Shown piece by piece: positions 1,519-42,502 of a DNA stretch of 64,000 nt. The notes under the pieces were generated by a model. It was not told the DNA's origin. It did no database searches and saw only the letters and a list, made by a program, of their open reading frames with translations. Position 1 is the first letter of the stretch. The number at the start of each line of letters is the position of its first letter. A program made the translations under genes and the position numbers. The stretch comes from Pelagicoccus sp. SDUM812003. Its GTDB lineage: Bacteria > Verrucomicrobiota > Verrucomicrobiia > Opitutales > Opitutaceae. The stretch lies in contig NZ_JARXHY010000003.1 of NCBI RefSeq assembly GCF_031127815.1, positions 186,001 to 250,000 on the forward strand. Reading direction: 5' to 3'.

Positions 1519-1920
1519 TCGGGCGGCTCGGCTCGGACTGTCGGGACGACTCGATCGCGTCTCGATGAGGCGTCTCTCGCTGCGCAGAATAGCTAATACT
1601 GAAAGTGACGACTAGGGATGTTACTCTATATAGCGATCTTTGGGTCGGCTTGATAGCAATTTCAGCGTTCTGCTGTTATATAATGTAAAAGCGTGTAAGG
1701 TTGTCTGAATCGCTAACAGTTTTCACGGTATGCATAGCAGTGTGAGTAATAATCTCTATTGGGTTGTAAGTATCGCATTGGCAAGGTGATGCATGTGCTA
1801 GTGGATGAGTGGGAGGTTTTTGGTACTTCGGGTGCTTATATAGGGATAACTGAACCGCGGATCGTTCCCGCTAAAAGCGAGGAGGGTTCGCTACTTTCAA
1901 CCTATTAGAATAATCGAAGT
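1519..1920. other. AT-rich intergenic region upstream of the VPDSG-CTERM gene
   Basis: About 400 bases without a convincing gene, clearly more AT-rich than the flanking genes. A TATAAT hexamer is present at 1679-1684, but no good -35 box lies 16-18 bases upstream, so a promoter is only possible. I see no riboswitch, tRNA or repeat. Confidence 0.5.
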
Positions 1921-2538
1921 ATGAAAATATTGCCTAAGTTTACCGCGGGCTTAGCCGCCCTCGTCGCTATCGTTTCCGTTACCCCAAGCTACGCGTTGAT
2001 TGTCTCGGTGTCGGGACAGGGTGATAAGATTGCTCCGCCGTCTAAGGTGCTCGACGGGGAAGCGACCAATCGTCAGCAGCAAGGCTTCGAAGAGCTGCAG
2101 AATGTGCTTCTGGCGGCCGACCTGTATTTCACCGGAGGAGTCATCTCGGCGGGTACTCGAGTCAGTAGCCACATGATCTTCCGCAATCGTGAAACTGATT
2201 CGACCGCGAATTCGATCACGACAGCTACCTGGACGTTCGATGGCGATATCCTCGGCATCATGTATGATCAAAACGGTGTCGATGAATTCAATTCGACCCC
2301 GATTCTCGGCTTGGTATCGACGGTGTACCCGTCCCCCGCGTACGACTCTCGCGGTTTGGAGTCGAACGATTCCCTAAGCGTTTCAGGCAAGACGCTCGAA
2401 GTGACCATGATCGTAGACCAGCCCGGCGACTGGATTCGCGTGGTCACCAAGGCGGTTCCCGATGCGGGAGCGACGATTTCGCTGCTCGGTGTTTCGTTGC
2501 TGGCCCTGGTTGGCATTCGCCGACGGTTTCAGAGCTAG
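1921..2538 (+). CDS. Secreted protein with VPDSG-CTERM sorting signal
   Basis: A 205-residue exported protein of unknown function. The N-terminus is a signal peptide (MKILPKF, a hydrophobic core, cleavage near SYA). The C-terminus is a tripartite sorting tag: VPDAG at about residue 178, a hydrophobic stretch (ISLLGVSLLALVGI) and a basic end (RRRFQS). This is the VPDSG variant of PEP-CTERM, known from Verrucomicrobia and Lentisphaerae, which exosortases recognise to anchor or release surface proteins. The central region resembles no enzyme I recognise and may be a beta-rich surface domain. No exosortase gene lies in the window. The ATG start is supported by the signal peptide; no clear ribosome site is seen. 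A strong terminator follows at 2574-2600. Confidence 0.85.
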   Translation: MKILPKFTAGLAALVAIVSVTPSYALIVSVSGQGDKIAPPSKVLDGEATNRQQQGFEELQNVLLAADLYFTGGVISAGTRVSSHMIFRNRETDSTANSITTATWTFDGDILGIMYDQNGVDEFNSTPILGLVSTVYPSPAYDSRGLESNDSLSVSGKTLEVTMIVDQPGDWIRVVTKAVPDAGATISLLGVSLLALVGIRRRFQS

Positions 2539-9758: not shown

Positions 9759-11693
9759 TTACTTCGCCTTCACCTTCGCCGCGAATCCGCCGTTCGCTCG
9801 CAGCGTTATGGTGAGCTGCTTTCCGGAAAGATCGCGCCTTTCCATCTCGTCGCCCTCGACGGCGTCGGTGATGAGGGTGCCCGTTCCGGTCCCAGGCAGC
9901 GTTACGGAAATGGTCTTTTCCTGGTCCTCGCCGTTGATGGCGCCGATGTACCAGCTTTCGCCGGCTCGGCGGGCGATGACCACGGTCTTGCCGGGATCGC
10001 CCAGCAGCAGCTGGCTCTCGTCCCAGGAGACTGGCACTTCGCGAAGGTATTGCTTGGCGTATTCAGGAACCTGTGACATGCCTTCGGGCGTCTCCGCGTA
10101 GTGCTGGATGCCACTGAGAAAGAGCACCGGCAGGGCGAGCTCGAATGTGTCTGTGGTGCGACGCTCGATGTTTGGGATTTCCCCCAGCACGGTTGGGGTG
10201 AAGTCCATCGGATCGAAGAGATTGCGGGTGAACGGGATCAGAGCGCTGTGGCTGGGCTGAAGATCGGCGTTTCCTTGGTCGAAGGTGATGAACTCCTGTC
10301 CCTTGATGGACTCCATGGTCATCAAGTGCGGGTAGGTACGGTGCCAGCCGCGCGGCAGTGTGCAGCCGTGGAAGTTCACCGCGATCCGCGCTTCCGCGGT
10401 ATCCTGGAGGATCTCGTGGTAGTACTGGATATTGGATTGTCCGTCGCCGCCGAAAAAGTCCACCTTGACCCCAGCCACTCCCATGGCGCTGATGCGCGCG
10501 AGCTCCTTTCTGCGGGTTTCGCGATCGATCATCTGGAAGGCGGGAGTCATGTGGGTGGAATCGTTCCAGCTGCCGGCGGAGTTGTACCACAGGAGGATCT
10601 TCACCCCTTTGCCGGCCGCGTAGTCGACGAGTTCCTCTATCTTCTCGTATCCGATCCGATGGTCCCAGCCGGAATCGATCAGGCAGTACTCCCAGCCCAT
10701 TTCGGCTGCGTAGTCGATGAACTCGACTTGCGTCGGGTAGACCGTGAAGTCGTCCTTGAGCAACACCCAACTCCAGGAGGCCCGTCCCGGCTCGACCCAG
10801 GAGAAATCTCCCTCGATGGCGGGCGAGGCGAGGTCGGTCACCAGAGTGGATTCGATCAGCGTATCCAGATTTCCCAGCGCGATGACGCGCCAAGGCGATT
10901 TCCAAAGGCCGGCGCCTTGGGGATTGAGCTCGCCGTTTCTGATGATCTCTTCGCTTTGGGGAAAGCCCACTTTGTATTCGCCGTCGGGCGCGTGCTGGCG
11001 AAGTCGGGTGCCGCAATAGTCCGGTCCGAGGTCGGATTCGCTGATGGAGACCCAGATCTCGCCCACCTTGAACAGAGCCGGGTAGACCCAGCCGGACTCC
11101 CAAGGAGCGGGCGTACCGACGGGGATATCCATCTGGTAGTGCTCTTCGTAGGACGGGTTGGTGCGAGCGAAACCGGTCTTGGCGAGGGACATGGGCTGCA
11201 TCCACGCTCGGGCATGCGTCGGAAAGTTGAAGGACGTCACCTCCTCCGTCATGTGACGCAGGGGAGCGGATTCGTCCGGAAAAACGTAGCGGAAGGCGAC
11301 GCCATCGTCGGAGATCTGGAAAACCACCTGCAGGGCCTCGCCCTGGGCGTTTTCCAAAGCGAGCGCTCGACGGTTCGCTAGGTAGTCGATGCTCGATTGC
11401 TTGCCGTGCTTGAGACGATAGCTGTCTTTGACCGTTTCGGAGACGCCGCTCGATATCAGCGAGAGATCGCGGGAGAAGTCGCCCTCCTGCAGAATCACTC
11501 CGAGATCGGAGGGCTCGAGGACCTGGACGCCGTCCACTTCGATCGTGTAGGATAGGAGTCCCTCTTCGAGGGTGACCACGCAGTCGATCTGGCCGTTCGG
11601 GCTTTCGAGGGTGATCGATTCGGCAGGCAAGGAAGCCATGCCGAGGGAAAGGGCGGCCGACAGCGCCGCGGAGCGTAGGATGGAAGACTTCAT
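9759..11693 (-). CDS. Secreted glycoside hydrolase family 97 (alpha-glycosidase)
   Basis: A 644-residue exported enzyme that probably removes terminal alpha-linked galactose or glucose from oligosaccharides. A signal peptide (MKSSILRSAALSAALSLGMA) is followed by the N-terminal beta-sandwich (TLESPNGQ), the TIM barrel (ASWSWVLLKDDF, CLIDSGWDHRIG, ILLWYNSAGSW) and a C-terminal beta domain. GH97 has retaining and inverting branches. The retaining branch uses an aspartate nucleophile after the strand GVKVDF. Here Asp412 occupies that position, close to Asp415 of the characterised Bacteroides retaining alpha-galactosidase, so a retaining mechanism is likely. ATG 11693 is chosen for the signal peptide; an extension to 11765 is unlikely. 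No transporter or other glycan gene is adjacent. Confidence 0.92.
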   Translation of the reverse strand: MKSSILRSAALSAALSLGMASLPAESITLESPNGQIDCVVTLEEGLLSYTIEVDGVQVLEPSDLGVILQEGDFSRDLSLISSGVSETVKDSYRLKHGKQSSIDYLANRRALALENAQGEALQVVFQISDDGVAFRYVFPDESAPLRHMTEEVTSFNFPTHARAWMQPMSLAKTGFARTNPSYEEHYQMDIPVGTPAPWESGWVYPALFKVGEIWVSISESDLGPDYCGTRLRQHAPDGEYKVGFPQSEEIIRNGELNPQGAGLWKSPWRVIALGNLDTLIESTLVTDLASPAIEGDFSWVEPGRASWSWVLLKDDFTVYPTQVEFIDYAAEMGWEYCLIDSGWDHRIGYEKIEELVDYAAGKGVKILLWYNSAGSWNDSTHMTPAFQMIDRETRRKELARISAMGVAGVKVDFFGGDGQSNIQYYHEILQDTAEARIAVNFHGCTLPRGWHRTYPHLMTMESIKGQEFITFDQGNADLQPSHSALIPFTRNLFDPMDFTPTVLGEIPNIERRTTDTFELALPVLFLSGIQHYAETPEGMSQVPEYAKQYLREVPVSWDESQLLLGDPGKTVVIARRAGESWYIGAINGEDQEKTISVTLPGTGTGTLITDAVEGDEMERRDLSGKQLTITLRANGGFAAKVKAK

Positions 11694-36089: not shown

Positions 36090-36119
36090 AGCCCGACGCC
36101 GTTTTGCGTCGGGCTTTTT
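36090..36119 (+). terminator. Intrinsic terminator of cysJ
   Basis: A perfect 10-bp stem AGCCCGACGC/GCGTCGGGCT around a 6-base loop, followed by a T run, 35 bases after the stop. Confidence 0.92.
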
Positions 36120-36277: not shown

Positions 36278-38725
36278 ATGAAGCGAACCTCAACCCAAGA
36301 GATCATGAAACGTATTCAGCTAGGATTTCCATTTTCATTCGCGGGCCGGGCGGCTTCTTTGCTCGGTCTGCTTACGCTTTCGGCAGCGGCCCAGGCTGCC
36401 GGGATCTTGACGCCAGTGAACTCCAGCGACCTGCCGGTCCAGCTGGAATCGCATCACGTGCGCGTGGTGATCAACAACGGCTTCGCTCGCACCGAGGTCG
36501 AGCAGACCTTCTTAAATCCGAACGCCTTTCCGATCGAGGCCATCTACCAGGCTCCGGTGCCTGAAAAGGGGGCCTTGTCCGAGCTCACCATTTGGGCGGG
36601 TGAGACTGTCCTGCAGGGGGAGGTGGTCTCCAAGGACGAGGCGGATCGCATTTATCAAGAGGAGAAGGAGCAAGGAAACGAGGTGGCGAAAGCCTCTCAG
36701 GATGCGTATCAACGCTTCGAATTCATGGTCGCCTCCGTTCCCGCGAAAGGAAGCGCCCGCATGCGCTACGTCTACTACGAGCCGCTTCCCATCGATACCG
36801 GGGTGGGGCGCTACACCTATCGGCTGGAGGAAGGCGGCACGGACGAAGCGGCAGCTTCCTTTTGGACGCTCCAGGACTCGGTCAACAAAGACGTCAGTAT
36901 CGAGGTCCTATTGAAGTCCGCCTGGCCGGTGAGCAAGACGCGAACGCCTCACTTCGCCGGATCGGTTGAAGCGATCGACGAGAGAACGCTTCGCTATACC
37001 TATGCCGACGCTGGCGGGCGTCTCGATCAGGACTTCGTTTTCTACTACATGCTGGAGGAAGGACTGCCCGGCAGGTTGGAAATGGTGACGTATCGGGAAA
37101 CTGATGACAAGCCTGGCGCTTTTATGATGGTGATGACGCCGGGTGTGGATCTGGCCCCGTTGGAGGGCGGGTCGGACTACGTTTTCGCCTTGGATGTTTC
37201 GGGCAGCATGAGCGGCAAGCTGCAAACCTTGGTGTCGGGTGTGAAGAAGGCGCTGCAGCAATTGAACGCAAACGATCGATTCAGGATCGTGGCTTTCAAC
37301 AATCGGGCTTGGGACTTGACGCGCGACTGGATTTCCGCGTCTCCAGAGAACGTCGCCGCCAGCTTGGTCGAGCTCGAATCGCTAGGCGCCAACGGTGGTA
37401 CCAATGTCTACGACGGCGTGCGCAGGAGCCTCGGGAGCCTGGATTCCGATCGCGTTTCGACGCTGATACTGGTCACCGATGGAGTTACGAACGAAGGCAT
37501 CGTCGATCCGGCGGCGTTTTACAAGCTGCTGCATGGTCAGGATGTCAGATTTTATGGATACTTGCTGGGCAATAGCAGCAACTGGCCCTTGATGCGTCTG
37601 ATGTGCGAAGCGAGCGGCGGTGCGTATCGAGCGGTTTCCAACAGCGACGATATCATTGGGGAGATCCTTCTGGCCAAAAACAAGATCGCTTATCAGAGCA
37701 TGCACCACGCGGAACTTTCGATCGACGGGACACGCGTCTTCGATGTCACCGACTTCAAGATCGGAAAGATCCACTATGGAGACCAGCTGACGCTCTTCGG
37801 CAGATACGAGGCGGGGGGCGAGGCTCGAGTGCGTCTCAAGACGAGAATCTCGGGTGAAGAAAGGATCTACGAGACGCATATCACTTTTCCGGATACGGAC
37901 ACTTCGCATCCCGAAATCGAGAGACTGTGGGCGATGGACCAGGTCCAGAAGATCGAGCTCAATGAGATGGCGGGACTCCTTCGGACGGGCGAAGCGAAGG
38001 AAGCGGTGAGGAGTCTCGGCGTCGCTTATCAGATTGTGACGAACGAGACCTCGATGATCGCCATGGCGGATGAAAGCTTCGACCGCCATGGAATTCAAAG
38101 ACGAAACCTGGAACGCGTTTCTCGCGAAGGCGCGGCTCGACAGGTCAACCCGAACGCGAGGGGCGCCCAGCGTGTGGACAGCCCGGCTCAGCCGATGTAT
38201 CAACAGCGCTCGCACTCGATGGGCGGAGGTGGCTCCGTCGGACCTTGGTTCGCGATCCTTCTAGCGTCCGGCGCCACGCTTCTCCTCTTCTCGCGACGAA
38301 AGCCAGCAGGCTCGGCCGGTAGACTTGGGGGGCTCGCCTTGACCCTACTGGCGCTTGGCGCGTACCAGCATGCGGATGCGACCGATAGCGCAGAGCATGC
38401 GATGCGGCGCTCGTCGCTCCCGTCGAGCAGCATCGATCGCTCCATCGAGGAGTTCTGGAGCGTGAGCGAAGCGGAGGCCCGTGTCGATGAACCCGCTCCC
38501 AGAGCGGCTTTGGTGACGGAGTCCCAGACCGATGGTCGAAGGAGCGAATCAAGTTCTCGAGAATGTAGTGAAAAGAACGATACGATGAGCTTGGATCAGC
38601 GTCGTCACACTCGGAGCGATCGTGGACGTTTCGGCCTGACCCTTTTCGATCGGCTGCCGATCATCGGTTTCGTATGGGGAAACGATTCCGAAAACGTCGA
38701 TGACCGTTTTTCCGGTCGCAAGTGA
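36278..38725 (+). CDS. Secreted VIT and vWA domain protein with internal GlyGly-CTERM-like signal
   Basis: An 815-residue exported protein. A signal peptide ends near AAAQAAG (residue 41). A VIT domain (about 45-175, with VRVVINNGFARTEVEQTF) precedes a vWA domain (about 295-470) with an intact metal site, FALDVSGSMSG and later LVTDGVTNEG. Near residue 648 comes SMGGGGSVGP, a hydrophobic helix (WFAILLASGATLLLF) and a basic SRRK, the layout of a GlyGly-CTERM tag. Unusually it is not at the end. About 140 further residues follow, including a second hydrophobic helix (LGGLALTLLALGAY) and a charged tail. An alternative ATG at 36305 also fits the signal peptide. The next gene encodes a rhombosortase-like protease. 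The architecture recalls sortase-target VIT/vWA proteins of marine Proteobacteria. Confidence 0.85.
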   Translation: MKRTSTQEIMKRIQLGFPFSFAGRAASLLGLLTLSAAAQAAGILTPVNSSDLPVQLESHHVRVVINNGFARTEVEQTFLNPNAFPIEAIYQAPVPEKGALSELTIWAGETVLQGEVVSKDEADRIYQEEKEQGNEVAKASQDAYQRFEFMVASVPAKGSARMRYVYYEPLPIDTGVGRYTYRLEEGGTDEAAASFWTLQDSVNKDVSIEVLLKSAWPVSKTRTPHFAGSVEAIDERTLRYTYADAGGRLDQDFVFYYMLEEGLPGRLEMVTYRETDDKPGAFMMVMTPGVDLAPLEGGSDYVFALDVSGSMSGKLQTLVSGVKKALQQLNANDRFRIVAFNNRAWDLTRDWISASPENVAASLVELESLGANGGTNVYDGVRRSLGSLDSDRVSTLILVTDGVTNEGIVDPAAFYKLLHGQDVRFYGYLLGNSSNWPLMRLMCEASGGAYRAVSNSDDIIGEILLAKNKIAYQSMHHAELSIDGTRVFDVTDFKIGKIHYGDQLTLFGRYEAGGEARVRLKTRISGEERIYETHITFPDTDTSHPEIERLWAMDQVQKIELNEMAGLLRTGEAKEAVRSLGVAYQIVTNETSMIAMADESFDRHGIQRRNLERVSREGAARQVNPNARGAQRVDSPAQPMYQQRSHSMGGGGSVGPWFAILLASGATLLLFSRRKPAGSAGRLGGLALTLLALGAYQHADATDSAEHAMRRSSLPSSSIDRSIEEFWSVSEAEARVDEPAPRAALVTESQTDGRRSESSSRECSEKNDTMSLDQRRHTRSDRGRFGLTLFDRLPIIGFVWGNDSENVDDRFSGRK

Positions 38726-38794
38726 GACAGCGAAAGCGAGCTCCTGGGGCCGGCTCTCGTCGAACGAGGGGCTGGCCCTTCCGAGATCTGGCTT

Positions 38795-39412
38795 ATGAGA
38801 TCAATACGTAAAACCGTTCCTTGGGTGACGCTCCTGATGGGTTCGCTGGCCCTGGGGCTCCAGACGCTGGGCGAGGCCCGATTGCAGACTTGGCAATGGA
38901 GGAGCGATGCGTGGGCAAGCTCGGAGGTGTGGCGCCTGGTGACGGGTCATCTCTGCCATTGGTCATGGGATCACCTGGTGTGGGATCTGGCCGTGTTCGT
39001 CGGTCTGGGAGCTGGATACGAGATTGCGGGAAAACGTATCCACATGTTGCTCATGCTGGCAGGGACCACGCTATTGACGGATGTGTTTCTTCGGTGCTCC
39101 GATCGTTTCGATCTCTACCGTGGTCTGTCCGGCTACGCCCTGGCCCTCTTCGTCGGCCTGCTGGCGAAGCTCGTTCGAGGCGGGCTCGAAAGGGGCGATC
39201 ATGGGCGGCTGGCAATCGGCGTCCTCGGAGCGTTTCTGGTGATCGGGAAGGTCGGATACGAGCTCGCTCTTGGGCAGTCGATGTTCGTTTCCGGCGGGGG
39301 CGGGGGATTCCATGTGGCGGTGGAGGCTCACCTGGCAGGAGGGCTCGCGGCGGCCCTGATCGCTTGCTGGCGTCACCTTTTCCTTGACAGCATACCAACT
39401 GGTCGGTTTTAG
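38795..39412 (+). CDS. Rhombosortase-like rhomboid intramembrane protease
   Basis: A 205-residue membrane protein with about six helices. It shows the rhombosortase pattern: VWRLVTGHLCHWSWDHLVWD (about residues 45-64), the catalytic serine in YRGLSGY (Ser112) and the probable catalytic histidine in VEAHLAGG (His179). Rhombosortases cleave GlyGly-CTERM proteins in the membrane and are often encoded beside their targets. The preceding gene carries such a tag, which supports the call. The gap is 69 bases. It is shorter than standard rhomboids, as expected for this subfamily. An ordinary rhomboid protease is the alternative. Confidence 0.78.
   Translation: MRSIRKTVPWVTLLMGSLALGLQTLGEARLQTWQWRSDAWASSEVWRLVTGHLCHWSWDHLVWDLAVFVGLGAGYEIAGKRIHMLLMLAGTTLLTDVFLRCSDRFDLYRGLSGYALALFVGLLAKLVRGGLERGDHGRLAIGVLGAFLVIGKVGYELALGQSMFVSGGGGGFHVAVEAHLAGGLAAALIACWRHLFLDSIPTGRF
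39384..39412 (+). promoter_or_regulatory. Promoter and operator upstream of the TetR gene
   Basis: A consensus -35 TTGACA (39384-39389) is followed by the element ACCAACTGGTCGGT (39394-39407). It lies in the end of the rhombosortase gene, directly before the TetR start. The same 14 bases recur at 40058-40071. This suggests autoregulation. Confidence 0.65.
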
Positions 39413-40030
39413 ATGTCGCCAATGTCTCCCGTCCGTCAACCAGAGGCCACCCGGGCCAAGATCCTGCAGACCGCCTTCGAGCTGTTCCATCAGCGCACCT
39501 TCAGCGGCACTAGCGTAAACGAGATCGTGGAGAAGGCGGGCATCACCAAGGGTGCCCTCTTTCATCATTTCAAGGGCAAGCTGGAACTGGGCTACGCGGT
39601 GGTCGACGAACTGCTGCGCGAGGAGATACGCCTGTCCTGGGATGAAAAGCTCAAGAACACCGATGATCCCATCACTCGTCTGCGTGAGATTCTGCGCGGC
39701 TTCGCGGACGAAATGAGGGAGTCGCCCGAGATGCTTTGCTGCGGCTGCCCGGTCAACAACCTGACCCAGGAGATGTCCTCCATCGACGACACCTTTCGCC
39801 AAAAGCTGCAGACGGTCTACGCGGATTGGATCGGCGCCATCGAAAACGCTCTGCGCATCGGCATCGAAGCGGGAACCGTGCGCAGCGACATTTCTCCAAG
39901 CTCGGTAGCCGCCACCATCGTAGCCATTTTCGAAGGGTCGGTCGGCTTGATCAAGGTCCACCAGACGCTGGAGTTCATGGACCACCTCGCCAAAGGCATT
40001 CCTGTCTTCCTCGAGGGCCTGCGCCCCTAG
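39413..40030 (+). CDS. TetR-family transcriptional regulator
   Basis: A 205-residue repressor-type regulator. The N-terminal helix-turn-helix spans about residues 13-60 (TRAKILQTAFELF, SVNEIVEKAGITKGALFHHF), and the C-terminal ligand-binding domain is helical with a CCGCPVNNL motif seen in many TetR proteins of the YcdC/AcrR-C type. It sits in front of an RND/LolA-like/outer-membrane operon and an identical 14-bp element precedes both, so it probably represses itself and that operon. The start may be ATG 39413 or ATG 39422; the first overlaps nothing and abuts the upstream stop codon. Confidence 0.9.
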   Translation: MSPMSPVRQPEATRAKILQTAFELFHQRTFSGTSVNEIVEKAGITKGALFHHFKGKLELGYAVVDELLREEIRLSWDEKLKNTDDPITRLREILRGFADEMRESPEMLCCGCPVNNLTQEMSSIDDTFRQKLQTVYADWIGAIENALRIGIEAGTVRSDISPSSVAATIVAIFEGSVGLIKVHQTLEFMDHLAKGIPVFLEGLRP

Positions 40031-40057
40031 GCGGCCTTTTATTTCGTCAACTAACAA

Positions 40058-40071
40058 ACCAACTGGTCGGT
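40058..40071 (+). promoter_or_regulatory. Second copy of the TetR operator
   Basis: ACCAACTGGTCGGT, identical to 39394-39407, placed 28 bases after the TetR stop and 58 bases before the RND gene start. Its core ACCA-AC-TGGT is an inverted repeat, as expected for a TetR dimer site. Confidence 0.65.
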
Positions 40072-40129
40072 ACCTTTAGGGGTTGCCGAGCAATCGCCAC
40101 GCTCAAAATCCAACGATTCAGCTTTTGCC

Positions 40130-42502
40130 ATGTCTGAAAAACGCCAAGACCCCGCTCCCGGTCGCGTGGAACGCTACGCTCAGGGACTCATCGCCCACCG
40201 CTGGAAGGTCCTGCTAGGTTCCCTCCTTTTTGCCGCCGCCTGCTTTTTCGGAGCGCGAACGATCGAGTTCGAAAACAGCTACCGCATCTTCTTCTCGGAG
40301 GAGAATCCTCAGCTGCAAGCTTTCGAGGCGTTGCAGAACGTCTACACCAAGGATGACAACATTCTCTTCGTGCTCACCGCCCCAGAGGATAGCATCTACG
40401 AGGCAAAGTTTATGGAGGCTGTGCGATGGCTGACCGAAGAGGCCTGGCAATTGCCGTATTCGCGGCGCGTTGATTCCATCACCAACTTCCAGAATTCGGT
40501 CGCTGTCGAGGACGACATTTTCGTAGAGGACTTAGCTCCCGAGGAAAAGGAGTTGGACGCGGCCCGTTTGGCCTACATGGAACAGGTCGCTCTGAACGAG
40601 CCGCTCCTCTACAATCGAATCATCAATTCGGATGGTTATGCCACCGGAGTGACAGTCACGGTTTCGCTTCCGGAACTGGATCTGAATGAAACGCCCGAGA
40701 CTGCCGCGGCAGCTCGCGACCTGGAGCGCCGGTTCAACGAACGGTATCCAGAAATCCAGACACACCTTGCGGGCATGGTCATCATGGACAACGCGTTCGT
40801 GGAGTCCACGGTTAACGACCTGAAGACCATCGTGATGCCGATGTTTTTCGCACTCTTCGTGGTCATGGCGATTCTGCTTCGCTCCTTCTGGGGGACGTTG
40901 GCTACCGGGCTGGTGCTGGTGCTCACCTTGATGACATCCTTCGGACTCATGGGCTGGGTAGGGATCAATATGAGTACTCCACTTGGCACGATGCCCATCA
41001 TGATTATGACGCTAGCGGTGGCCGATTGTGTCCATATTCTGGTGACAATGCTCAATGAGATGCGTCATGGGCGCGAAAAGAGATCGGCTCTAGTAGAAAG
41101 CGTTCGCATCAACTTCGCTCCAGTCCTATTGACCAGCGTCACTACCGCCATCGGGTTTCTGAGCATGAACTTCAGCGACGCGCCTCCTTTTCGCGATCTC
41201 GGAAATGTGGTGGCGATAGGCGTGATGGCCGCTTGTGGATTCTCAATCGTGACTTTGCCTGCTCTTGTATCCGTGATTCCGCTACGAGTGAAGCGTTTCG
41301 CGGAAGGTGAAACGCATCTGTTCGATAAGTGGGTGGAATTGCTTCAGAAGCATCGAGGTCTTTTCCTGGCCGGTTCGACTGCAGTGGTGGCCTTGATGGC
41401 CCTCATGATCCCGCGCATCGAACTCAACGACCAGTGGACCAAATACTTCGATACCTCGCTAGATGTCCGGGTGGATATGGACTATGCGGAAGAAAACCTG
41501 ACTGGGATGTCCAACCTCGAATTCTCGCTTCCCGCTGGCGAGAGTGGCGGCATCAGCAATCCGGAGTATTTGCGTCTGCTGGACGAATTCAGCGAATGGT
41601 ACCGAAGCAATCCCGACGTGCTGCAGGTGAACTCCATCGCGGATACCATGAAGCGATTGAACAAGAACATGCACGGCGACGATCCGGCGTTCTACCGCAT
41701 CCCCGAAGAGCGCGATCTGGCGGCCCAGTATCTGTTGATGTACGAGTTTTCGCTGCCGTATGGCTTAGACCTGAACAACCAGATCAATGTGGACAAGTCA
41801 GCGAGCCGCGTGACTGTCACCGCTGCCGATTTGCGCACGAAGGAGCTGCGGGAACTCATCGCCCAAGGCGAGCAGTGGCTGGAACAAAACGCTCCGGCCT
41901 ACATGCATGTGAAGGCCGCAAGTCCCACGGTGATGTTCGCCTACATTTCCGAACGCAACATCAATAGCATGCTCACGGGAACGATCCTTGCGTTTGTATC
42001 GATATCGTTGATACTTATGTTCGCCCTGCGAAGCGTGAAGTACGGCTTGGTGAGCATCATCCCCAACGTGGTGCCTGCGATCCTTGGCATCGGAACCTGG
42101 AGCGTGCTCTACGGAGAGATGGGCATGTCTGTATCGGTGATCACGGGAATGACGCTCGGGATCGTGGTCGACGATACGGTGCACTTTCTCTCAAAATACA
42201 TCCGCGCTCGCAGGGAGAAGGGACTAAGCGGCGAGGCCGCAGTTCGTTCCGCGTTTCGAACGGTTGGCAAGGCTTTGGTGGTGACGACTCTCATCCTTTC
42301 AGTCGGTTTCAGCATCCTGGGTCTCTCAAGCTTCCGGCTGAACAATTGGATGGGACAGCTCACGGCCATCGTGATCGTGTTCGCGCTCATCGCGGACTTC
42401 GTGCTGCTCCCCGCGGTACTGCTCTCTCTCGACAAGAAACGGGCGCGTTGCGCTCGAACGAAAGCGGTGGAATCACGCGAAGCGGAGCCCGCTCTCGTGT
42501 AG
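40130..42502 (+). CDS. RND-superfamily (MMPL/HpnN-type) exporter
   Basis: A 790-residue membrane protein with twelve predicted helices in two halves. Each half has one helix, a large periplasmic loop and five helices. Conserved pieces are FENSYRIFF in loop 1, TLAVADCVHILVTM in helix 4 and MTLGIVVDDTVHFLSKY in the second half; acidic residues in these helices carry the proton path. The length is short compared with tripartite AcrB-type pumps (about 1000), fitting single-component lipid or hydrophobic-compound exporters. It is followed at 22 and 28 bases by a LolA-like protein and an outer-membrane beta-barrel, a combination seen in other Gram-negatives. Confidence 0.9.
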   Translation: MSEKRQDPAPGRVERYAQGLIAHRWKVLLGSLLFAAACFFGARTIEFENSYRIFFSEENPQLQAFEALQNVYTKDDNILFVLTAPEDSIYEAKFMEAVRWLTEEAWQLPYSRRVDSITNFQNSVAVEDDIFVEDLAPEEKELDAARLAYMEQVALNEPLLYNRIINSDGYATGVTVTVSLPELDLNETPETAAAARDLERRFNERYPEIQTHLAGMVIMDNAFVESTVNDLKTIVMPMFFALFVVMAILLRSFWGTLATGLVLVLTLMTSFGLMGWVGINMSTPLGTMPIMIMTLAVADCVHILVTMLNEMRHGREKRSALVESVRINFAPVLLTSVTTAIGFLSMNFSDAPPFRDLGNVVAIGVMAACGFSIVTLPALVSVIPLRVKRFAEGETHLFDKWVELLQKHRGLFLAGSTAVVALMALMIPRIELNDQWTKYFDTSLDVRVDMDYAEENLTGMSNLEFSLPAGESGGISNPEYLRLLDEFSEWYRSNPDVLQVNSIADTMKRLNKNMHGDDPAFYRIPEERDLAAQYLLMYEFSLPYGLDLNNQINVDKSASRVTVTAADLRTKELRELIAQGEQWLEQNAPAYMHVKAASPTVMFAYISERNINSMLTGTILAFVSISLILMFALRSVKYGLVSIIPNVVPAILGIGTWSVLYGEMGMSVSVITGMTLGIVVDDTVHFLSKYIRARREKGLSGEAAVRSAFRTVGKALVVTTLILSVGFSILGLSSFRLNNWMGQLTAIVIVFALIADFVLLPAVLLSLDKKRARCARTKAVESREAEPALV

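What the first reader, a model, noticed from the sequence alone, without database searches (positions are those of the whole stretch)
36278..39412. VIT/vWA surface protein paired with a rhombosortase-like protease
A secreted VIT+vWA protein bearing a GlyGly-type tag (SMGGGGSVGP, hydrophobic helix, SRRK) sits 69 bases before a rhomboid with the rhombosortase layout (VWRLVTGHLCHW, GLSG serine, AHLAGG histidine). In marine Proteobacteria similar VIT/vWA proteins are targets of a dedicated sortase. Here a rhombosortase seems to take that place, so this may be a dedicated one-substrate surface-processing system.
Basis: partly seen in the sequence, partly recalled or inferred. Interest (0 to 1): 0.75.

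Follow-up and report, generated by a model that had tools for sequence, protein, structure and literature searches.

The report
Surface protein with internal sorting tag
A marine bacterium makes a surface protein next to the membrane protease that probably trims it, a pairing of a known kind, but here the trimming tag sits inside the protein and is followed by a second secretion-like signal and an extra tail of unknown role.

Summary
The window carries a secreted VIT/vWA protein (36278-38725) and, 69 bases on, a rhomboid that passes the curated rhombosortase model (TIGR03902, 87.2 bits, cut-off 84; GlpG model 23.9). The pair is conserved: 14 of the 16 genomes with a close VIT/vWA homologue among 57 examined have it, as do 66 of 76 assessable named loci from several phyla.

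The pair is not new in kind. Haft & Varghese 2011 already described one-substrate rhombosortase systems and vault-type vWA proteins with GlyGly tags.

In 6 of 8 genomes of the genus (Pelagicoccus, by named members) and in strain K14, the tag helix and basic cluster are followed by a second signal-peptide-like segment and a 94-125 residue tail without a Pfam match. One of these strains, DG1235, was listed in 2011 as having a rhombosortase but no GlyGly-CTERM protein; the internal tag offers an explanation.

Best reading: a dedicated rhombosortase pair whose substrate has become a two-product precursor. Cleavage is inferred, not shown.

The parts
36090..36115 (+). terminator-like hairpin after cysJ, so the VIT/vWA gene may start its own transcript
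   Evidence: 4 such sites found in the region, 3.2 expected in shuffles; consensus match only; no sigma-70-like promoter found
36278..38725 (+). VIT/vWA protein gene, 815 aa
   Evidence: Pfam VIT and VWA_3 over cut-off
36278..36397 (+). N-terminal signal peptide region (residues 1-40, ...LLGLLTLSAAAQA)
   Evidence: read from the translation and hydropathy; no signal-peptide program was run
36443..36769 (+). VIT domain, residues 56-164
   Evidence: Pfam PF08487 86.3 bits
37181..37630 (+). vWA domain, residues 302-451; metal-site residues D306, S308, S310, T375 and D401 are invariant in 15 aligned homologues
   Evidence: Pfam PF13768 51.2 bits; alignment A1; the metal-site assignment is from general knowledge of vWA domains
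38222..38245 (+). GlyGly-type tag motif GGGGSVGP, residues 649-656
   Evidence: best own-genome match to the paired-tag model, 39.5 bits (the window's tag is one of the model's 29 rows)
38246..38290 (+). tag transmembrane helix, residues 657-671
   Evidence: hydropathy peak 2.12
38291..38302 (+). basic cluster SRRK, residues 672-675
38303..38380 (+). second hydrophobic segment with signal-peptide layout (ends ADA), residues 676-701
   Evidence: same layout in 7 of 7 tailed proteins; the window's is the weakest of the seven on a 15-residue scale, 1.43 against 1.81-2.44
38381..38722 (+). orphan tail, residues 702-815, with conserved SSIDRSIEEFWSVSEAEA and RFGLTLFDRLPIIGFVWG blocks
   Evidence: alignment A3; 6 of 8 genus genomes plus K14; no Pfam match
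38746..38779 (+). RNA hairpin in the spacer between the two genes
   Evidence: z -1.95 here, -3.1 to -5.4 in five relatives with different sequences
38795..39412 (+). rhombosortase gene, 205 aa
   Evidence: TIGR03902 87.2 bits, cut-off 84; model pLDDT 92.6; best fold matches GlpG
39128..39130 (+). predicted catalytic Ser112
   Evidence: invariant in 60 aligned rhombosortases; aligned to the GlpG GLSG motif
39140..39142 (+). Leu116 at Ser+4, where the 2011 paper reports His in virtually all rhombosortases
39329..39331 (+). predicted catalytic His179
   Evidence: invariant in 60 aligned rhombosortases

Best explanation
This is a dedicated rhombosortase pair. The VIT/vWA protein is exported by its N-terminal signal peptide and held in the inner membrane by the GlyGly-type tag helix. 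The neighbouring rhombosortase then cuts among the glycines, and the VIT/vWA part, probably with a new lipid-like C-terminal group, goes on to the cell surface, presumably through a type II secretion system. In the Pelagicoccus group the substrate has gained an extension after the tag. A second signal-peptide-like segment re-enters the membrane and carries a 94-125 residue tail out to the periplasm. Cleavage by rhombosortase, and probably by signal peptidase I, would give two exported products from one precursor. Shown here: gene order, conservation, model membership of the protease, the tail and its narrow spread. Inferred: cleavage, modification, surface export, topology and fate of the tail.
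For: TIGR03902 over cut-off; rhomboid fold with GlpG best; catalytic Ser and His invariant in 60 of 60 aligned. Adjacent in 14 of 16 genomes with a close VIT/vWA homologue; the one genus member without that gene (G007) also has no rhombosortase over the cut-off. 66 of 76 assessable named loci have the pair, and 6 of the 10 others lie in genomes with an over-cut-off rhombosortase elsewhere. Distances within the two families correlate, r 0.77 over 62 pairs, 0 of 2000 permutations as high (shared species history alone can give this). The tail looks coding and constrained: pN/pS 0.36-0.74 over 21 pairs, against 0.15-0.33 for the core. The second segment has drifted to 8-41% identity yet keeps a basic, acid-free start, a hydrophobic core and a small-x-Ala end in 7 of 7. 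A GspD-like and a GspE-like gene lie about 1 kb apart in the own genome. Precedent in V. cholerae for cleavage, modification and T2SS export (abstract of PMC6219818).
Against: No experiment. The window's tag does not match TIGR03501; of the sorting models it touches, two Gram-positive-type sortase signals score higher (14.6 and 14.1 bits) than the GlyGly variant TIGR03867 (9.6), all below their cut-offs. Ser+4 is Leu, not His. The small-x-Ala end is only suggestive: 553 of 10000 shuffles do as well. The window's second segment is the least hydrophobic of the seven, and pN/pS of that segment is 0.49-1.12, near neutral. Synonymous sites are near saturation, so pN/pS is rough. GspD and GspE matches are below their curated cut-offs. 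The tail model is poor, pLDDT 53.
Confidence: 0.6

Rival explanations
1. Same pair, but the tail stays in the cytoplasm: the second hydrophobic segment is only a membrane-touching stretch, and the tail is a cytoplasmic domain left behind after rhombosortase cleavage, perhaps sensing whether cleavage took place.
For: The window's second segment is weakly hydrophobic on a 15-residue scale, 1.43; the small-x-Ala motif is not clearly beyond chance, 553 of 10000 shuffles; the model rhomboid substrates named in PMC3237569 section 17 carry at least forty residues past the helix.
Against: All seven segments have a basic, acid-free start, a hydrophobic core and a small-x-Ala end despite low identity; the other six score 1.81-2.44 on the same scale.
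Confidence: 0.25
2. The tail blocks the tag: in the Pelagicoccus group the protein is no longer a rhombosortase substrate and stays a two-helix membrane protein; the rhombosortase acts on something else or is a remnant.
For: Known GlyGly-CTERM tags have zero to five residues past the helix; the window tag fails TIGR03501; the rhombosortase of the window only just passes its cut-off.
Against: The tag matches the paired-tag model at E 5.6e-9 (partly circular, since the window's tag is one of its 29 rows), the catalytic residues are kept, adjacency is kept in 6 of the 7 genus members that have both genes, and G002 has the pair without the tail.
Confidence: 0.15
3. The tail is not a domain but read-through of spacer sequence after loss of the stop codon.
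For: It is restricted to one group and changes faster than the core.
Against: Conserved blocks across seven genomes, bit scores of 123-197 against the tail model in six genus genomes (these rows built the model), pN/pS below 1 in all 21 tail pairs.
Confidence: 0.03

Closest known systems
Dedicated rhombosortase/GlyGly-CTERM pairs (Haft & Varghese 2011, PMC3237569, Table 3)
   Same: One rhombosortase gene next to its single tagged target; tripartite tag of glycine motif, helix and basic cluster; vault/vWA proteins with GlyGly tags shown there (Fig. 3C legend).
   Different: There the tag ends the protein (zero to five residues follow). Here 140 residues follow, with a second hydrophobic segment. 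Ser+4 of the protease is not His. DG1235, of this group, was listed there as having a rhombosortase but no target.
VesB / RssP of Vibrio cholerae (PMC6219818, PMC13393428; abstracts seen)
   Same: Rhombosortase-cut GlyGly tag leading to surface display through the T2SS.
   Different: Several substrates for one protease, a C-terminal tag, and VesB is a protease rather than a VIT/vWA protein.
Marine proteobacterial sortase target (TIGR03788) with its dedicated sortase (TIGR03784)
   Same: Homologous VIT/vWA body: 178.4 bits.
   Different: Far below the cut-off of 551.65; no ORF with the simple sortase motif TL[STA]TC was seen in the 80 named loci; the linked enzyme is a rhombosortase.

Membership tests
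rhombosortase (TIGR03902) | score over the curated cut-off of 84 bits | tested here: met
   87.2 bits
rhombosortase (TIGR03902) | rhomboid fold with Ser/His dyad | tested here: met
   pLDDT 92.6, GlpG best in PDB, S112 and H179 invariant in 60 rows
rhombosortase (TIGR03902) | WRxxS/T motif in loop L1 | tested here: met
   WRLVT at residue 46; motif from PMC3237569 section 17
rhombosortase (TIGR03902) | AHxxGxxxG in TM6 | tested here: inconclusive
   AHLAGGLAA: AHxxG met, last G is A
rhombosortase (TIGR03902) | His four residues after the active serine, reported in virtually all rhombosortases | tested here: not met
   Leu116 here; 0 of 63 readable rhombosortase ORFs in the VIT/vWA loci have His (4 of 67 could not be read)
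GlyGly-CTERM protein (TIGR03501) | score over the curated cut-off of 15.5 bits | tested here: not met
   not listed at E up to 10 (HMMER filters drop most weak matches); TIGR03867 variant 9.6 bits, cut-off 19.7. One gammaproteobacterial homologue of 8 peptides tested, L152, passes TIGR03501 with 17.9 bits
GlyGly-CTERM protein (TIGR03501) | glycine motif, helix, basic cluster in order | tested here: met
GlyGly-CTERM protein (TIGR03501) | tag at the extreme C-terminus, 0-5 residues after the helix | tested here: not met
   140 residues follow SRRK; rule from PMC3237569 section 17
GlyGly-CTERM protein (TIGR03501) | N-terminal signal peptide and no helix between it and the tag | tested here: met
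   only two 15-residue hydropathy peaks of 1.5 or more in the window protein, at residues 30 and 658; hydropathy only
GlyGly-CTERM protein (TIGR03501) | cleaved by rhombosortase | not testable with these tools
   needs an experiment
marine proteobacterial sortase target (TIGR03788) | score over the curated cut-off of 551.65 | tested here: not met
   178.4 bits
dedicated (one-target) rhombosortase system | a single recognisable target in the genome, encoded next to the enzyme | tested here: met
   one convincing tag in the own genome, adjacent; the TIGR03501 hit over its cut-off scores better as VPDSG-CTERM. The genome is 97.5% complete and tag models are short, so this is not absolute

The most novel reading that the evidence does not exclude
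A rhombosortase-dependent polyprotein: one precursor with an internal sorting tag followed by an internal signal peptide, cut by two membrane proteases into a surface VIT/vWA protein and a separate exported tail peptide of an undescribed family. An internal tag would widen the definition of GlyGly-CTERM targets and mean that C-terminal-only searches miss some substrates.
Probability: 0.4. Interest if true: 0.65.

Novelty: new variant of a known kind. Interest (0 to 1): 0.5.

Why it matters
GlyGly-CTERM tags are found by looking at protein C-termini. If internal tags are cut, such searches miss substrates, and the published case of a rhombosortase without a target in DG1235 would be explained. 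It also gives a natural one-enzyme, one-substrate pair in a marine bacterium for testing how rhombosortases choose their cut site without the reported His near the active serine.

Tried and rejected
Searches that led nowhere: P0002 against genome contigs found no relative. The tail has no Pfam match, and its fold model was too poor to search with (pLDDT 53). Paper searches for 'dedicated sortase' with 'von Willebrand', 'GlyGly-CTERM' with 'VIT domain', and 'Pelagicoccus' with 'rhomboid' gave 2 off-topic, 0 and 0 papers.

Considered and rejected: a sortase-linked system (no ORF with a simple sortase motif in the 80 named loci); other GlyGly targets in the genome; the downstream TetR and MMPL genes as conserved partners (the same order stands beside the G005 rhombosortase but not in G001 or G002).

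Limits: the rhombosortase profile was built partly from hits in the same loci, and the loci are the best 80 of 194, chosen by likeness to A1. Four of the 80 loci could not be assessed (L106, L122, L134, L139). The tag regex misplaced the tag in a few rows (L093, L102, L117, L123, L127, L142); for these I used the C-termini printed, and L142 has a broken frame. The tree holds 22 of the 80 named rows, picked by me, plus the window, L038 and L039. The phylum search for the tail scored only 11 candidates per genome in the rows shown and its sample evidently held no other tailed genome. In one search I read three own-genome tag hits (L188, L189, L190) on the wrong strand; one search repeats this correctly for all seven.
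Full report
The observation. The window holds a VIT/vWA gene at 36278-38725 (815 aa) and a rhomboid gene at 38795-39412 (205 aa), same strand, 69 bases apart. Pfam finds VIT (86.3 bits) and VWA_3 (51.2 bits) in the first and Rhomboid (24.2 bits, cut-off 22.6) in the second. NCBIfam puts the rhomboid in TIGR03902, rhombosortase, with 87.2 bits against a cut-off of 84; the GlpG model scores 23.9. The VIT/vWA protein is a distant homologue of the marine sortase target TIGR03788 (178.4 bits, cut-off 551.65).

The protease. An alignment of 60 rhombosortases, 59 from related loci and the window's, keeps Ser112 and His179 without exception. The predicted model is good (pLDDT 92.6), and its best PDB matches are GlpG (TM-score 0.63 by query, E 1.6e-5). 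Against GlpG, Asp64 lies at the asparagine of the HxxxN motif and Leu116 four residues after the serine (alignment). Haft & Varghese (PMC3237569, section 17) report His at Ser+4 in virtually all rhombosortases. In the loci found through the VIT/vWA protein, 0 of 63 readable rhombosortase ORFs have it; the commonest residues at Ser+3 and Ser+4 are Asp-Ser, 34 of 63 (4 of 67 ORFs could not be read). This may mark the VIT/vWA-linked rhombosortases as a branch of their own; I built no tree of rhombosortases.

The pair in relatives. In 57 genomes, own included, 28 have a rhombosortase over the cut-off and 16 have a close VIT/vWA homologue at E up to 1e-60. In 14 of these 16 the two genes lie within about 0.72 kb. 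In G005 they are about 11 kb apart. In G032 the VIT/vWA match is a fragment at a contig end and no rhombosortase passes the cut-off. In the genus, 7 of 8 genomes have both genes; G007 has no such VIT/vWA gene and no rhombosortase over the cut-off. Other rhombosortases of the family stand next to a different tagged protein, ending for example in EHKPGYTGSGSFG, a helix and arginines.

The pair in named genomes. A scan with the VIT/vWA alignment kept the best 80 of 194 loci. Of these, 78 have a complete C-terminus and 76 also at least 700 bases downstream; 66 of the 76 have a rhombosortase ending within 2 kb. Of the 10 others, 6 lie in genomes with an over-cut-off rhombosortase elsewhere, 1 in a genome with a below-cut-off match only, and 3 in genomes with none. 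Record titles name Verrucomicrobiota, Planctomycetota, Lentisphaerae, Kiritimatiellota, Acidobacteria, Desulfobacterales and Gammaproteobacteria among others, many of them MAGs. Within-family distances of the partners correlate (r 0.77, 62 pairs, 0 of 2000 permutations as high); common species history can produce this alone.

The tail. In the window the tag (GGGGSVGP, helix, SRRK) is followed by 140 residues. Six of 8 genus genomes share the tail, and strain K14 does too: 7 of 150 family genomes in all. In a phylum sample of 387 genomes only the own genome matched, a search with limited depth. In the named set the tail occurs in 5 of 78 complete proteins, L082-L086. Contig lengths identify G003-G006 and G015 as Pelagicoccus sp. 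SDUM812002, P. mobilis, a Pelagicoccus MAG, Verrucomicrobiae bacterium DG1235 and Puniceicoccaceae bacterium K14 (my matching). On a 25-row tree of the VIT/vWA body the tail needs two changes, most simply one gain and one loss in G002; G002 has no tail match anywhere in its genome.

Anatomy of the tail. All seven tailed proteins have, after the tag helix, a short start with 2-5 basic and no acidic residues, a 12-residue hydrophobic core (mean 1.9-2.7) and a small-x-Ala end. The motif alone is only suggestive: 553 of 10000 shuffles do as well. The segment has drifted to 8-41% identity with pN/pS 0.49-1.12, as a signal peptide could, but a segment without function could too. The part after it is 94-125 residues with two conserved blocks, SSIDxSIxxFWxVSExEA and GHFGxNLFNxIPxFDFVWG (both vary in single members). 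pN/pS is 0.36-0.74 in the tail against 0.15-0.33 in the core, with synonymous sites near saturation. Pfam finds nothing and the fold model is poor.

One target. TIGR03501 gives three hits in the own genome, one over its cut-off (16.2 bits, cut-off 15.5), and does not list the window's tag. Two of the three are C-termini of secreted-type proteins that score over the cut-off of VPDSG-CTERM (28.5 and 34.2 bits, cut-off 22) and lower for GlyGly; the third lies inside a membrane protein. A model of 29 paired tags, the window's included, finds the window's tag at 39.5 bits and seven weaker hits (18.5 bits or less) of which none has glycine motif, helix and basic cluster in order. A GspD-like gene (318.2 bits, cut-off 351.35) lies about 1 kb before a GspE-like gene (520.2, cut-off 630.25) in the own genome, so a type II secretion system is likely but was not checked part by part.

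What is known. Haft & Varghese 2011 (abstract, sections 9, 12, 15 and 17 and passages; [quoted passage not shown] vault-type vWA proteins that end in GlyGly, LPXTG or PEP-CTERM tags; tags with zero to five residues after the helix; and three genomes with a rhombosortase but no target, DG1235 among them. They say that such cases may hold a divergent target form. Gadwal et al. 2018 (abstract) show cleavage, a glycerophosphoethanolamine-containing addition and T2SS-dependent surface display for VesB; Roberts et al. 2026 (abstract) show that tag and protease suffice for membrane association but not for outer membrane translocation. I found no paper on an internal tag; the searches were in an open-licence library. 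Of the 21 papers listed I opened four: these three and PMC5300114 (passages).

Reading. The pair itself is a new member of a known kind. The internal tag with a second signal-like segment and an orphan tail is, as far as these searches go, a new variant. The most likely mechanism is rhombosortase cleavage in the glycine stretch, freeing the VIT/vWA part for the surface; whether the tail is also freed in the periplasm is the open and testable point.

Noticed in passing
window 38746-38779: A stable RNA hairpin sits in the spacer between substrate and protease genes; five relatives have hairpins of different sequence in the same spacer (z -3.1 to -5.4; window -1.95). It may set the ratio of the two products.
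   Followed up: partly
L078 7500-18400 (G005): In one Pelagicoccus MAG about 11 kb separate the two genes, with many small ORFs and a repeated stretch of roughly 280 bases at 10628 and 18010, the latter beside the VIT/vWA gene; it looks like an inserted island.
   Followed up: partly
window 1909-2538: A small secreted-type protein ends in a VPDSG-CTERM tag (34.2 bits, cut-off 22), a tag that I recall as exosortase-linked, so two sorting routes may coexist in this genome.
   Followed up: partly
L047, L052, L058, L062, L063: A second group of rhombosortases in the family stands next to a roughly 280-330 aa protein ending in EHKPGYTGxGxxG or close to it, a helix and basic residues, apparently another dedicated target.
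   Followed up: partly
window 39413-42502: A TetR gene starts directly after the rhombosortase stop codon, followed by an MMPL transporter gene; the same order is seen in G005 but not in G001 or G002.
   Followed up: partly
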